From positions 250,501-314,500 of the forward strand of contig OX359202.1 in NCBI GenBank assembly GCA_947172415.1: a DNA stretch of 64,000 nucleotides, in the 5' to 3' direction. Both the position numbers and the translations under genes were made by a program. The notes under the pieces are model-generated. The model did not search any database. It worked only from the letters and a program-made list of their open reading frames with translations, and had not been told where the DNA came from. Numbering within the stretch: position 1 is the first letter of the stretch; each line of letters opens with the position of its first letter. The stretch comes from Chondrosia reniformis. Lineage: Eukaryota; Porifera; Demospongiae; Chondrillida; Chondrillidae. Shown one piece after another: positions 9,062-15,539 of the stretch.

Positions 9062-11272
9062 CTATTGACTTAGAGAAGTAGTGTCAGAGATGTACTTGTA
9101 TACCTGAAACATGTGAACTCCATTGGTAGATATGACAACCAACTCTCTAAATCCATCCTCTGTGAAGTCAGTATACCTCAATCCATGGATTGGAAATGCC
9201 ACTTCGTAATTACTTATTAATTCAAACTTTGGTTGACTTGAGACCTCACTAGTAATTTTATATATTAAAATGTGCTACAAAGAAACATACCCTATTCATC
9301 AGTTAATTGATAAGAGTGAGCTCTGAAATGGCAGCAATATTTAGATACTGAAGAACACATATATAGACGTACTGACCTTGCCAAAGGTTCCCAAGGCAAC
9401 CTCATTGCGACCATCAAAATCAAAATCTCCTATCTCACAACACAAGATGCTATCATGACTGCTTGCTTGAGGCAAGGGGACCGAGGAGGTAAATCCATTC
9501 AACTTGACATCACTGCAATAATCACCAATCAACATTAGAATTAATTCTGGAAACAAATTTATCACTTTTGAGCAAAATTAATAATCTGTGCACGAAGATC
9601 ACTGTATGTTTTTAAAATGAAATTAATTTTTCATTTCTTTATTTATTTTAACAACACATTAAATACAGTATTATACTCACCAAAACACAACGGCCATTTC
9701 CACTGCTGAACATACCAGCAGGTGTATGGGACAGTCAGTGTTGCCTTTGGCAACAGATGAGCTATCAATGAAGGCGGGGCATGGTGGGGGCGTGGCCTGA
9801 TGATAGAACAGCTTGGTGACAGTAATTGGACCAGTGAGGCTATGGCAGTTCCAAGATCTCAGCAACGCTAACAGAAGAATGTAGAAGGATGCGGTGGACA
9901 CAGGTATGGCACATCTGGTGGGGACTGACTATTGTTCTCTGTATCCACTGTGGCACACTTGACAAAGCCATCTAGGCAGCCCAAGGTAGAGAATCTCTCC
10001 CGCTCTCTAATGTGAAAGTCCATTGCAGTAACACTAAAGAGGAGCATTGGAGATGTATATTGCAGCTGAGGTCCATTCTGTACTACATCATCAAAACTGG
10101 TTGGCATTATTTTGCTTTTTGTATGCCATGCATGGTCACATTAATAATAATATATGCAGCAAAGTATCTCAACTCATCAAGCGAACTTTGGTTCCACCCA
10201 TTTGCTCATTGTGCTCCTCAGGGGACATGAGTGGGCAGGGGTAATATCCAGAGTATAATAATAATGATATCGATGCTTTAAGATTGACTTTTGATCTAAA
10301 AGTTCCCCTATTTTTCCAAAGTATCTCTTCGTAATATATTGTGCATTATCCTAAAAATTATCCAACGCTATGTACTAACCATGAAGGGAGGTCTTGCAGT
10401 TCAGGAAAGTACACAGAGCTGTCTTCCATTTCTTGAATCAGTACCTGTGTAAATTGCAGACAAATGGATGTGCCATCTCAAACATTGCTAGCCAACTACA
10501 TATCTAGTGTTACAGTGCATTCTCAACTGACACTTGTGTCCGCTGTCCTCTGATACATGTGAACCTTATTGTCTGCTCCGCTCAGCAGGAACACTGTCTC
10601 CATCCCAGAACTGGTACTGACGCTACGCCGAAGAATATACATAGATAGAGCTATTACTTGGCGAAGACGAGACTGCGTACTTGATGTGAGTGAGTTTGTA
10701 CGGAAGGCATTTCAACGGAATGGTGACCCAATCTTCCGCCACGTCCGTCCACTGTACCGCTTGGCTCTCGTCTCTCAGTCCGTACACGTTGAGGTACATT
10801 CCCGGCGCTTCGATGTCCTAATAGAACAGCAATAGTAACTAAGTTCTCAGTATTGTCTAAATGGTAGACTACCTCAACGAAATAGCTTACCATACACGAA
10901 GCGACTGCAATAATAATTCCACCGGATGGGCTAGTATACGCGTCAAGAGCAATTATGGTGGATTCGCCTGTAGCAAATCAATCACAAATAACAACCACGA
11001 CGAGATCACATTCTAGCAATAAAGCACAATCTGCCAAATGGCTCTATCGCTTAAAAGACTGATCGATTGACTCACGTACCGGAGAGGTTGGCTAGCTGGA
11101 GAGACGTAAAGACGGGTCGTCGACCTTCCTTGCACTCCACCTTGCACACGCCTCTCTTTAAGGTCGACAAAAGAAAATAGTTTTGTTTCTGAACGTTGTG
11201 AAGAACATCAGAGATGCCGTAAACATTCGTTTGACCTTGTAAAGGTACAAATTGGACTTCGCTAAGGGACAT
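9062..11272 (-). CDS. KPTN: Kaptin (KICSTOR subunit)
   Basis: Kaptin is an actin-associated beta-propeller protein and a subunit of KICSTOR, which holds GATOR1 at lysosomes to restrain mTORC1. Exons with good phase: 11080-11272, 10891-10967, 10681-10817, 10532-10622, 10380-10444, then ~9910-10033, 9681-~9870, 9377-9512 and 9062-9274. Matches to human kaptin include QTNVYG near the start, METVFLLSG, FSTLGCLDGFVK, TGPITVTKLF, HDSILCCEIGDFDFDGRNEVALGTFGK (FG-GAP-like) and FTEDGFRELVVISTNGVHMFQ. The splice between the sixth and seventh exons (around 9880-9925) is not resolved by eye. An in-frame ATG further upstream at 11326 is possible, but the start at 11272 fits the family better. It is head to head with the novel Cys/His gene. 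Confidence 0.88.
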
Positions 11273-11526
11273 TTCAGCTCTCTCAATTCTTGGGAATTCC
11301 CCTAGGGCATCCACATAGGCCCACACGTGATCGCAACAGGGCCAGGCCAGGCAGCTGTGCGTGAGTCAGTGAAGTGACTCATTCAAATTAGAATATAAGT
11401 ACCTCCAGAATAATAATTTCATCCTATATACAACTCATCGAATCGGTAGGTATCATTGTAGGCCTACCATCAGTATTGTAATATTACTGATCGATCACAT
11501 TCTCTTTCTATTGGTTTAGATTTGCG
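11273..11526. promoter_or_regulatory. 254-bp bidirectional promoter KPTN / novel Cys-His gene
   Basis: Divergent starts at 11272 and 11527 leave 254 bp. It contains a CACGTG-like element (CACACGTGATC near 11322) and TGAGTCA/TGACTCA-type AP-1-like motifs near 11361-11380. Functions are unverified. Confidence 0.5.
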
Positions 11527-14500
11527 ATGTCTAGTCCGATCGATTCGGTCGAAGACCTCAATACAAAGTTTAAGTCTCTCCGAGGGAGGATTGTGGAGTT
11601 TTATTCGCAAAACCATGCAAAGCTACTGACACTAGCGCAGCATTTCAAGTACGTGTGGTTACCTCACTTCTCCTTCGGTACTCGTACAGACAACGAAAAT
11701 AGCTTTCTTCTAGAATGCTTAAAAGGATTCGGTTCGATTTACGATATGTCTCTCCTGCGTCAGTTAGCTGGGATGCCAATTAACGGGAAGTTGGAGCGCT
11801 TTCTCCCTGAACTAATCAAAAGAAGAGAGGCAATAGCTGAGAATGTACTTGTCGACCACGCGAATACTGTGGCTGATGTATCCGTAGAACCATCGGCAGA
11901 GATGAACGATCATTTCACTGAAGTTTTCGTCAAACTCCGACTGGACAGACCAGCTTCAATGCAAGTGCTAGATGCGTTTAAGAGGGACCTAGCGCAGTAT
12001 ACGGGTCTTGGCGTCCACTGTCTACAGCTGGTTCGAGCGGCCCAGGATTTGTCGAGTGGCTCAACCTTACTTGAGTTGCATTTTTATATTCCGAAGCTGC
12101 TTTCCGTTCAGTTTCTGAATCAGTGTCACAGCAAATTCCCGTTCGTCTTTGAATATGCTCACCTGGAGCAGCTGCGCATGGACGACATCACCATCGCCAT
12201 CTCGCATGCACTCTGCATCACAGAGTTGGAGAAGGTATGTTCTGCACACAAAATATCTCAATTATGGGGTGGCTAAAGATTAATACGTATACTGAGGAGA
12301 ATGGCTTCCTAAAATGTACAATGTTTGGAATGTGGAGGTGTATGAAATGTATGTGTGCTTCAAGTAATCAATATGACCTTAAAGGATATAATGATATTCA
12401 TATGTGTTCATACCCAAGAGCAACAATGTGTATAAAATTTATGAAAAAACATTTCTGACTTTACAGGTCAAAGAGAATGTTAGAAAAAAGGCAATTTCTT
12501 TTGATGCTAAAAATTATGTAGTCAATTTTGAGGATGCTGAAGGCTTCCTTAACGGAGCTATAGCTAACATTCGATTGGCCTCTTCCGGTTGCTCCCCAAG
12601 TGTGACCTTTACCAACGGTTTTGACCTGTCACACAATGAGCACATACCTTCCCTCGAGGGAAGCGTGAGCAGCAGAGAGGGGATGCAGGCTGGCAGAGAG
12701 GGGATGCAGGCTGGCAGAGAGGGGATGCAGGCTGGCAGAGAGGGGATGCAGGCTGGCAGAGAGGGGATGCAGGCTGGCAGAGAGGGGATGCAGGCTGGCA
12801 GAGAGGGGATGCAGGCTGGCAGAGAGGGGATGCAAAATGGCAGTGAAAAATCCAAAGTTGGTGGAGGAATGCCAGTGTTAGAAGATGACACTAGAACTAA
12901 ACGTAATTAATGCACACAATGATATTAGAATGGTATTTACTGTTTAGTACAATTAGAAAAGAAGAATGGGACAGTCTATATAGCCTTGTATTAAGTTGGT
13001 GTGAAAGGACTGTTTCTGTTTCCTAGGTAATTCTGTGAGGTCTGGTCATGTACAAGCACAGTCAGCACAGTCCAATCAGGAACCAACTTCAAATATGGAT
13101 TTGAACTCTAAGCCAAAACCGGAGTCGGAACAGGATCCATCCCCTACAAAGAATGGCAATATTCGCCTTTTTGCTGCCATTACTGATATTCCGCCGGCCC
13201 TGGTCAAGGATGTCATCCAATCCTATCAGAAGGGAGAACTGATATGTCGCAATTGCTACTATTCAAAAAAGGGAATTGTGACTGCCAAACCAAATTGGAA
13301 ATGTTTTCAATGCAAAGACTCCAACTCAGTTCCCTTTATTCGAGCTAGTCCACTTTGCAATAGCTATGCATCCAAAGTGGCCATCTTGCCGACGCCAAAA
13401 GACGACCCAGACCTTCCCTTCTCAATGTGTGCTGAGGCGGAGCATTACAGTTGTTTTGAGCTCATGGCTAAGCACGACCTGTACTATGCTCACAGTGTCG
13501 AGGAACTGGTCATTTGGAACATGGAGTATCATTACAGTATGTGAAACATGGCTGTAGTGCTGTAGTTTATATCTTGATTATCTGCTTGTTCTGATAAGAG
13601 AATCACCACTAATTAGTAAATGAAAACTAATTACTAGCTTGTACACATTAAATAAAAACATTAAAAAATGAAGTTAAAAGTCGGGATGGCACTATAACAT
13701 TGTATAGGAGGGGAAACATGAGGGAGGTATTGCTGTGGCAATTGAAGTTCAGTGGCAGAGCACTGGTGGTCATAACTACTTGTCCTGGCTTCAATATCCA
13801 GCAATTGCTTCTTTCATGTTTTCTCCTCTGTGATGTTTGAGGATGATTGTAATTACTTGTGGTTTGATTATCACTTTGATCAGTCATATATATTCAATAT
13901 ATTAGACACTTTGCTCTGCCATTGTAGAATGCACTTTTAAAGAGTTTATAAAGTTGTGGAACAATGAAGAGCCTAATTCAGCCAAGTTTGTGGAAGCACA
14001 GACAAAGAAGACTGTCTCCTCAGAAAAAGGAAAAGAGCAGAGCAGTTCTCCCAAGACCTCAAAAAAAGCCATTGGGAGTAAAGGATCAAAGCCTGTATCT
14101 GCTCCAGGTACTTACAAGTTCCAGGTGTCATAATACTTGCTTCAATACACAGATTTCCGTATATGTGCATTATGTAGTAGCCGTCAAGTATGACCCAAAA
14201 AAGACCAAGTTTCCTCACGCGCGTAATATACCAGAGGAACTACTTGATGATGTCATTTCCTGTTTCAATAAAAAGGAAGTTGTCTGTCGAAAGTGCTTTT
14301 ATGAGAATGGCAAACGTTCCATGTTTGTAAAGCATCCTAGAGGAGGAGGGGATGTATGTCAAAACTGCAAGATAATGGTCCCGCCTCTGGTGCCTCTTAT
14401 CGTCATTCCTGCCAGTGAGAGGTGTGTCTCCAACCTCCCCTGCAGTGGATGGGTGGCTCTGCCCCCTCGACCCACCGACCGCTCCACTTACGAGTATTGC

Positions 14501-15539
14501 GGTAAAGGTGGCACTCATAGCCGGTGTTTCAGCTATCTCTACAGAAACCTCTGGTTCACTCACACAGTAGAAGAACTGGTAGTTTGGACCATTGAAAGAG
14601 ATACAGGTAAGTCTCCCTTCAACCCACACTTCCATAAGTAATTGCCGTGGAAATTGTAGCTCAGTGGCAGAGCACTGGTGAAATAAATCAGCTGTCCTGG
14701 ATTCCATTTCCAGCAATTACTACTATTGTGGTTTCTCTCATAATTTATCATTACACACTTCTTGTCAATTTAGGGTTGACCTTCCCACAGTTTGTCCAGC
14801 AGTATAAGGAGCGCAGTTTGGAGTCGCTGATTGAGGGGAGAAAGAACAGAGGTTCCCTTGCAAAAACTGTCCCAAAGGGAAATCCCCCTGAGGTGGATGC
14901 CAAGTATATTCCTGAGGAGATTCACTATAGGAGTATGGCAGACATCCCCATCAAGCTGTTAATGAGTGTCATTGACTGCTATAGAAAATACAAGTTGGCT
15001 TGCAAGAGGTGCTTCTATGTCGACAAGATGATTGTTGAGAGGCAGGCAAGTACAGTTAACAACTTTTACGATCTTGTACACTTCTTCAACATCTCCAGTC
15101 TTATCAGCAGATTCCAATTGTTTTGTCTCACTTTCTTATTCTTCTCTCCCTCCCTCCCTCCCTCTCTCTCATCTGTAGGACGCCGCATGTCCACGCTGCA
15201 AGAAGCCATTTGAACCACTCCACGTCATCCCTTGTAGCAATCTATGTAAGTACTACTTTGGCACTCACATCGCCCTACCCCCCTACCCAAGGGGAGGACC
15301 CGAACATAAGGTGTTTGAGTACTGCCAGAAGGGCGATCATCAGAGGTGCTTCAGGGTGTACTATGAAGAGGGATTCTGGTACAGCCACTCTGTCGAGGAA
15401 GTAGTGGTATGGACAGTGGAGAGAGAGCTGCGTAAGTGGTGATTAATGAGATTTTATGAAAGTCTTGTAGCAGTAAGCAAGTATTAATTCTCTTACAGAG
15501 ATCCCCTTTGATGAGTTTGTGAAGCAGTTTGATGAGTAA
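11527..15539 (+). CDS. Unrecognised protein with three tandem Cys/His modules
   Basis: I do not recognise this gene. Exons 11527-12234, 12467-12902, 13027-13536, 13928-14107, 14178-14606, 14774-15045, 15179-15431 and 15499-15539 sum to 2829 nt, or 942 residues. Residues 1-115 look helical; about 125-235 form an alpha/beta stretch ending in LLELHFYIP, reminiscent of an uncharacterised module in cnidarian and sponge proteins (recollection only). Exon 2 ends with eight REGMQ(A/N)G repeats. Three related modules of about 120 residues follow, with consensus IP-x2-L-x2-V-I-x2-Y-x-K, C-x2-C-(F/Y)-Y, C-x2-C, a lone C after the VIP-like segment, ALPP-x-P, (Y/M)C-x4-5-H-x2-C and (Y/H)S/THSVEE(L/V)V(I/V)W. 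Two zinc sites per module are predicted. Intron 6 is GC-AG and module junction introns are phase 1. No signal peptide or membrane span is seen, so it is probably intracellular. Confidence 0.8.
12672..12840 (+). repeat. 21-bp coding minisatellite (8 copies)
   Basis: Eight near-identical 21-bp units encode REGMQAG, the last as REGMQNG, inside exon 2 of the novel gene. Units are almost identical at the nucleotide level, which implies recent expansion or homogenisation. All changes preserve frame. Confidence 0.95.
13731..13812 (+). repeat. tRNA-like element 1 (intron after module 1)
   Basis: It can fold as a cloverleaf: 7-bp acceptor stem GCAATTG/CAATTGC, D-arm GTTC-loop-GAGC with the AGTGGCA loop, and a T-arm-like CTGG/CCAG hairpin. 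It matches element 2 at 14641-14722 over the whole length, including about 10 bp 5' of the acceptor stem. The decayed anticodon arm argues against a functional tRNA; it reads as a tRNA-derived SINE fragment or tRNA pseudogene. Confidence 0.65.
14641..14722 (+). repeat. tRNA-like element 2 (intron after module 2)
   Basis: It contains an exact box A match (TAGCTCAGTGG against TRGYNNANNNG), a D-arm GCTC/GAGC, a 5-bp anticodon stem CTGGT/ATCAG with a seven-base loop lacking U33, and a perfect T-arm CTGGA-TTCCATT-TCCAG. Box B is degenerate. It has the same orientation as element 1 and sits in the corresponding phase-1 intron of the next module. Confidence 0.68.

What the first reader, a model, noticed from the sequence alone, without database searches (positions are those of the whole stretch)
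11527..15539. Undescribed triplicated Cys/His module in a 942-residue protein
Three adjacent ~120-residue modules share an order of motifs I cannot place in any known zinc-finger family: IP-x2-L-x2-V-I, C-x2-C-(F/Y)-Y, C-x2-C, a lone Cys, ALPP-x-P (weaker in module 1), C-x4-5-H-x2-C, then HSVEE(L/V)V-W. The conserved C/H residues suggest two zinc sites per module (C2-C2 and C-C-H-C). The N terminus adds a helical region and an alpha/beta stretch ending LELHFYIP. The gene shares a promoter with kaptin, so co-regulation with mTORC1 control is possible. The multi-exon structure and intact frame over 2829 nt argue for a real gene.
Basis: partly seen in the sequence, partly recalled or inferred. 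Interest (0 to 1): 0.88.

Follow-up and report, generated by a model that had tools for sequence, protein, structure and literature searches.

The report
Sponge HELZ2-type zinc modules without helicase
This sponge gene carries three copies of a poorly described zinc-binding unit that also forms the front end of the vertebrate protein HELZ2, but here it stands without HELZ2's helicase and RNA-cutting parts and with an altered zinc site.

Summary
In detail: an eight-exon gene encodes 942 residues with three Cys/His modules, and each exon aligns with the relative P0001, whose frame lies on one short contig. The 'unplaceable' module can be placed. No Pfam model reaches its cut-off, but the module is homologous to the tandem zinc modules at the N terminus of HELZ2. 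A sponge-module HMM hits HELZ2 N termini (best domain 27.8 bits, E 1.1e-8; best shuffled 7.4 bits). A HELZ2 HMM built from vertebrate and mollusc modules finds all three window modules (E 4.1e-13). Profile-profile comparison gives 97.55%, E 4.9e-12, against at most 6.3% in 50 controls. Longer relatives (P0002, P0003, P0005) add HELZ2's next unit. The second zinc site is probably not C-C-H-C: the third CCCH Cys is gone (0 of 15), while a new His and the His of HSVEE are kept (19 of 19 full modules), which suggests C-H-C-H. Most likely it is a recognition or adaptor arm without the enzyme; this is inferred. Kaptin is confirmed as neighbour; an mTORC1 link is not. The N-terminal 236 residues remain unidentified.

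The parts
11527..12234 (+). Exon 1: N-terminal 236 residues; predicted helices (8-110) then a beta-alpha-beta-beta-alpha-beta stretch (130-212); unidentified
   Evidence: 31% identity to P0001 over 192 columns; model pLDDT 42.4, low confidence
12467..12902 (+). Exon 2: linker with minisatellite-coded (GMQAGRE)n, repeat at 12672-12834
13027..13536 (+). Exon 3: linker and module 1 (C455 C458 C474 C477 / C492 / C516 H521 C524 H537)
13928..14107 (+). Exon 4: end of module 1 (TFKEFIKLW) and linker
14178..14606 (+). Exon 5: module 2 (C648 C651 C672 C675 / C694 / C719 H725 C728 H740)
   Evidence: (model pLDDT 78.8, pTM 0.74)
14774..15045 (+). Exon 6: end of module 2, linker, first half of module 3 (C831 C834); followed by a GC-AG intron
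15179..15431 (+). Exon 7: rest of module 3 (C849 C852 / C868 / C894 H899 C902 H915)
15499..15539 (+). Exon 8: C terminus of module 3 and stop

Best explanation
Supported by the calls: the gene is a member of a helicase-less family made of HELZ2-type N-terminal zinc modules. Each module is a zinc-ribbon-like half (C-x2-C-(F/Y) ... C and usually a fourth Cys), a linker with a PPxP-like turn, and a CCCH-like finger closed by H(S/T)VEE..VW. In this family the third Cys of that finger is lost and a new His appears. Inferred: the module binds two zincs (C4 or C3H, and C-H-C-H). As is plausible for HELZ2, the array is a recognition arm for RNA or an RNA-protein complex. Without helicase and RNB it cannot degrade RNA itself, so it would act as an adaptor or competitor. 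The N-terminal domain would supply a partner or oligomer contact, and three modules would give avidity. My confidence is 0.95 for the family and about 0.4 for the mechanism.
For: Module HMM (14 modules) against the 100 proteins listed for a HELZ2-like query from this genome: 23 pass inclusion, E 1.9e-10 to 1.5e-4. By my count's table 35 of the 100 carry RNB; all 23 are among these and none among the other 65. The domain rows printed for them lie in the N-terminal part. Best domain: model 19-131 on residues 151-253 of a bird HELZ2, 27.8 bits; the best of 20 shuffles of each protein plus one reversal is 7.4 bits. Reverse test: an HMM of 48 vertebrate and mollusc HELZ2 modules gives the window protein E 4.1e-13 among nine proteins, with all three modules. 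hhalign gives 97.55%, E 4.9e-12, score 70.6; 50 column-shuffled controls reach at most 6.3% and score 20.9. The C-terminal unit of P0002, P0003 and P0005 matches the HELZ2/HELZ C2H2-CCCH unit at E down to 1e-19. The genome's HELZ2-like gene on C6 has exons of this type in front of helicase 1. Recognition role: human HELZ2 acts on LINE-1 5'UTR RNA, and the authors write that it is unclear which of its domains recognises it (PMC9839780, passages).
Against: No direct evidence of RNA or zinc binding. The CCCH-like finger of this family has lost a canonical ligand. In HELZ2 itself the finger His is kept in only 26 of 62 HMM-found modules (R 17, W 12), so RNA binding by this half may not be kept. 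12 of the 35 RNB proteins do not pass with the stand-alone profile: P0037, P0040, P0038, P0034, P0007, P0008, P0020, P0026, P0011, P0033, P0006 (E 0.087 to 100) and P0024 (not listed). Among them P0006-P0008 are the query's nearest relatives; P0006 matches only the HELZ2 profile (17.6 bits). Many of the 23 hits are near relatives (birds, frogs), not independent. The first profile search found no HELZ2 at E <= 10. Model coordinates could not be read, so the zinc geometry is unseen.
Confidence: 0.65

Rival explanations
1. The modules are protein-docking domains, not RNA binders: the protein is a scaffold that binds other silencing or decay factors, or HELZ2 itself, and regulates them.
For: Third CCCH Cys in 0 of 15 modules; a long conserved stretch (HSVEELVIWTVERE) beyond the zinc ligands; HELZ2 was first found as a PPAR coactivator (stated in PMC9839780, passage).
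Against: No partner is known from any call. The kept ligand positions fit a kept fold and do not tell protein from RNA.
Confidence: 0.35
2. An independent zinc module that resembles HELZ2 by convergence around Cys/His spacing.
For: Zinc modules are short and Cys-driven; identity in the profile alignment is 15%.
Against: Both HMM directions match over most of the module. Column-shuffled profiles that keep the Cys content fail. Three longer relatives have the same next unit as HELZ2, C2H2 + CCCH.
Confidence: 0.03
3. Gene-model artefact: wrong joins or a fusion of neighbours.
For: No transcript of this species was available; one intron has a GC donor.
Against: P0001 carries the same order from N terminus to module 3 in one contig barely longer than its frame, and each exon aligns.
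Confidence: 0.03

Closest known systems
HELZ2 (3'-5' exoribonuclease, helicase with zinc finger 2), N-terminal zinc modules
   Same: Module order and length: CxxC(F), a C/H pair, a strand, (I/V)RPxP against IPPxP, C...C...(C)...HSxxExxVWxxE; tandem arrangement.
   Different: The window protein has no helicase, RNB or C2H2-CCCH unit (7.3 bits over module 1). The third finger Cys is 0 of 15 against 50 of 50, and an extra His stands between the first two Cys in 15 of 15.
Helicase-less relatives P0002 (Em0023g129a; Ephydatia muelleri by my recall of the prefix), P0003 (Amphimedon queenslandica), P0004, P0005
   Same: Full modules of the same rewired type: four, three, two and four.
   Different: P0002, P0003 and P0005 go on with the HELZ2/HELZ C2H2-CCCH and beta unit; the window protein and P0001 have a different N-terminal region and end after module 3.
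HELZ
   Same: HELZ proteins such as P0045, P0019 and P0053 match the C2H2-CCCH unit of P0002, P0003 and P0005.
   Different: None of the 65 non-RNB proteins, HELZ included, passes with the module HMM.
eL40 ribosomal zinc ribbon; Pfam zf-4CXXC_R1 and Zn_ribbon_10
   Same: Helix followed by C-x2-C-(F/Y); best PDB sequence match E 0.024; zf-4CXXC_R1 E 0.00057 on P0001.
   Different: Only the first half of the module is covered; the Pfam scores are below the curated cut-offs.

Membership tests
HELZ2 N-terminal zinc module | profile match over the module in both directions | tested here: met
HELZ2 N-terminal zinc module | first site C-x2-C plus a second C/H pair | tested here: met
   first three Cys 19 of 19 full modules; fourth position Cys 12 of 15. 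HELZ2: C-x2-C 61 of 62, then His 55 of 62 and Cys 33 of 62
HELZ2 N-terminal zinc module | CCCH finger with C, C, C, H | tested here: not met
   third Cys 0 of 15; first and second Cys and His 19 of 19, extra His 19 of 19
HELZ2 (whole protein) | helicase - RNB - helicase | tested here: not met
   no such Pfam domain in the protein at E <= 10; no RNB or AAA_12 match listed by the genome searches lies in the window stretch C14:250501-314500
HELZ2 (whole protein) | C2H2 + CCCH unit after the modules | tested here: not met
   present in P0002, P0003, P0005; window only 7.3 bits, over module 1
zf-CCCH (PF00642) | C-x8-C-x5-C-x3-H | tested here: not met
   no PF00642 row at E <= 10; third Cys absent
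HELZ2 N-terminal zinc module | same three-dimensional fold and zinc geometry | not testable with these tools
   PDB sequence search with a bird HELZ2 N terminus found only a ZC3H7A finger for the later unit; model coordinates not readable

The most novel reading that the evidence does not exclude
Sponges separated the recognition arm of HELZ2 from its nuclease and helicase, rewired its second zinc site to C-H-C-H, and joined it to a new N-terminal partner domain. The product would be a stand-alone RNA-recognition adaptor that works in trans with the genome's several full HELZ2-like enzymes, and a natural isolate of the module for asking what the HELZ2 N terminus recognises.
Probability: 0.25. 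Interest if true: 0.7.

Novelty: new variant of a known kind. Interest (0 to 1): 0.5.

Why it matters
HELZ2 is an interferon-stimulated protein that inhibits LINE-1, and the domain with which it recognises RNA is stated to be unclear (PMC9839780, passages). Its human N-terminal extension has been noted as 'two zinc finger motifs' that complete a structural domain, conserved in Bilateria (PMC11317171, passage). This work gives that region a defined repeating module for which no Pfam model was found, extends it to sponges, shows a family built largely of it, and points to a compact one-exon module core (exon 5) that can be expressed to test what it binds. The ligand swap gives exact residues to mutate.

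Tried and rejected
Pfam on the whole protein, modules and relatives: no hit over a cut-off. PDB by sequence: weak eL40 zinc-ribbon similarity, E 0.024, first half only. Foldseek and VIA on the module-2 model: nothing. The profile of three long relatives found only proteins of the same kind, no HELZ2, at E <= 10, so I reached HELZ2 through the genome's own RNB and helicase loci. Module paralogues elsewhere in this genome: none found, but these searches scored only 4 and 5 candidates. The N-terminal 236 residues: no Pfam or PDB match worth naming, only themselves in the genome (one candidate), and a fold too uncertain to search. The idea of a domain shared with NLR proteins: a pattern found it only in this gene among the window and 18 HELZ2-locus stretches, and by eye nothing similar was seen in the stretches before 5 of the 101 NACHT matches; not claimed. 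The bacterial-type promoter scan between the two genes is not informative. Paper searches in which I saw no description of the module or of the sponge family (listings and the passages named elsewhere only).

Pattern bias: the 50 HELZ2 modules were cut from 33 proteins that I named, with a pattern that demands C-x2-C and limits the His position to a few letters. Two of the 50 are from P0006, and one further piece (P0037_279, the C2H2-CCCH unit) was dropped. One search recounts without such patterns. It gives the same picture for the sponge modules and 62 domains in 28 of 35 RNB proteins.

Full report
The gene. Joining the eight exons at 11527-12234, 12467-12902, 13027-13536, 13928-14107, 14178-14606, 14774-15045, 15179-15431 and 15499-15539 gives an open frame of 2829 nt, 942 residues and a stop. 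The closest relative, P0001, has the same order in 872 residues on a single 2773-bp contig, too short to hold introns of ordinary size. A pairwise alignment covers all eight exons (846 residues aligned, 324 identical); exon 2, with the linker, is the least alike, 19 of 103. The model is therefore sound, although no transcript of this species was seen.

Placing it. Pfam gives nothing over a cut-off. A first homology search found four proteins, one of them named Amphimedon queenslandica; a second, with three of them as profile, added P0005 and no HELZ2. The C-terminal unit of P0002 and P0003 reminded me of HELZ, from memory, which led to a test. The genome search lists 15 RNB matches, of which by my count 8 are flanked on the same strand within about 12 kb by AAA_12 helicase matches, the HELZ2 arrangement. 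Before helicase 1 of the C6 locus there are exons with CPKCF, RPLPP and a CCCH finger ending in FAHGETELQAW, then a second FPHSELEEKVW. With that protein as query 100 relatives were listed, among them HELZ2 of a turtle, birds, frogs, fish, mammals and a sea slug.

Statistics. The sponge module HMM passes inclusion in 23 of the 100 proteins, E 1.9e-10 to 1.5e-4. By my count's table 35 of the 100 carry RNB; all 23 are among them and none among the other 65, which include HELZ and MOV10/Armitage. The 12 RNB proteins that do not pass have E from 0.087 to 100, and one is not listed. They include P0006, P0007 and P0008, the query's nearest relatives; P0034, P0037, P0038 and P0040 do carry modules by pattern but are too far off. 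Twenty shuffles of each protein and one reversal gave at most 7.4 bits, against 27.8 for the best real domain. The reverse test, an HMM of 48 vertebrate and mollusc HELZ2 modules, gives E 4.1e-13 for the window protein among nine proteins, with domains at 450-552, 646-757 and 826-931. Among 5644 six-frame fragments of the window and 18 HELZ2-locus stretches its top five are two exons of the C6 gene and the three window modules; domain E runs from 9.8e-7 to 0.018, and the third window module, split by an intron, has a sequence E of only 0.14. Profile against profile (15 against 50 modules, two of the 50 from P0006) gives 97.55%, E 4.9e-12, score 70.6 over 99 columns at 15% identity; 50 controls with shuffled columns reach at most 6.3% and score 20.9. 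The next unit in the longer sponge proteins matches HELZ2 and HELZ at E down to 1e-19.

What differs. In the joint alignment 50 HELZ2 modules have the finger Cys 49, 50 and 50 times and the His 21 times (R 17, W 11). The 15 sponge modules have the first two Cys 15 times, the third 0 times and the final His 15 times. At a place where HELZ2 has Gly (43 of 50) they have His (15 of 15). Without patterns, 62 HELZ2 domains give Cys 60, 61 and 61 and His 26, R 17, W 12. The simplest reading is a change of ligand from C-C-C-H to C-H-C-H. This is inference from conservation; coordinates of the model could not be read.

Function. HELZ2 is the product of an interferon-stimulated gene and reduces LINE-1 RNA through the 5'UTR; the authors say that the recognising domain is unclear (PMC9839780, passages). 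The human N-terminal extension with two zinc finger motifs is described as conserved in Bilateria (PMC11317171, passage). Two HELZ2 genes of the sponge Dysidea avara show reduced expression in a symbiont treatment (PMC11229196, passage). From this I infer a recognition or adaptor role without catalysis. I cannot exclude a protein-docking role.

Surroundings. Kaptin lies head to head upstream, with about 250 bp between the likely start codons (from the frames). No RNB or AAA_12 match listed by the genome searches lies in the window. Introns 3 and 5 hold a 97-nt repeat, 77% alike.

Noticed in passing
13729-13825 and 14641-14737: Two copies (77% alike) of a 97-nt element in introns 3 and 5 with a tRNA-like stretch (GCTCAGTGGCAGAGC in the second copy, one mismatch in the first); it looks like a tRNA-derived SINE (recalled), though ARAGORN finds no tRNA.
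   Followed up: partly
12672-12834: Perfect 21-bp minisatellite, 7.8 copies, in frame and coding for GMQAGRE repeats.
   Followed up: partly
about 10523-11365, minus strand: Kaptin gene (KICSTOR subunit); joined exon pieces match solved kaptin at E 2.5e-11.
   Followed up: yes
G000 C10:4.19-4.21 Mb, C10:4.70-4.72 Mb, C6:6.51 Mb, C2:7.60 Mb, C5:7.98-8.08 Mb: Eight RNB matches flanked by AAA_12 helicase matches: several HELZ2-like genes in this genome, some clustered on C5.
   Followed up: partly
G000, most on C7, C9 and C1: At least 101 NACHT matches, many clustered on C7; open frames that look caspase-like to me lie before two of the five looked at (L040:1955-2788, L041:1420-2256; by eye).
   Followed up: no
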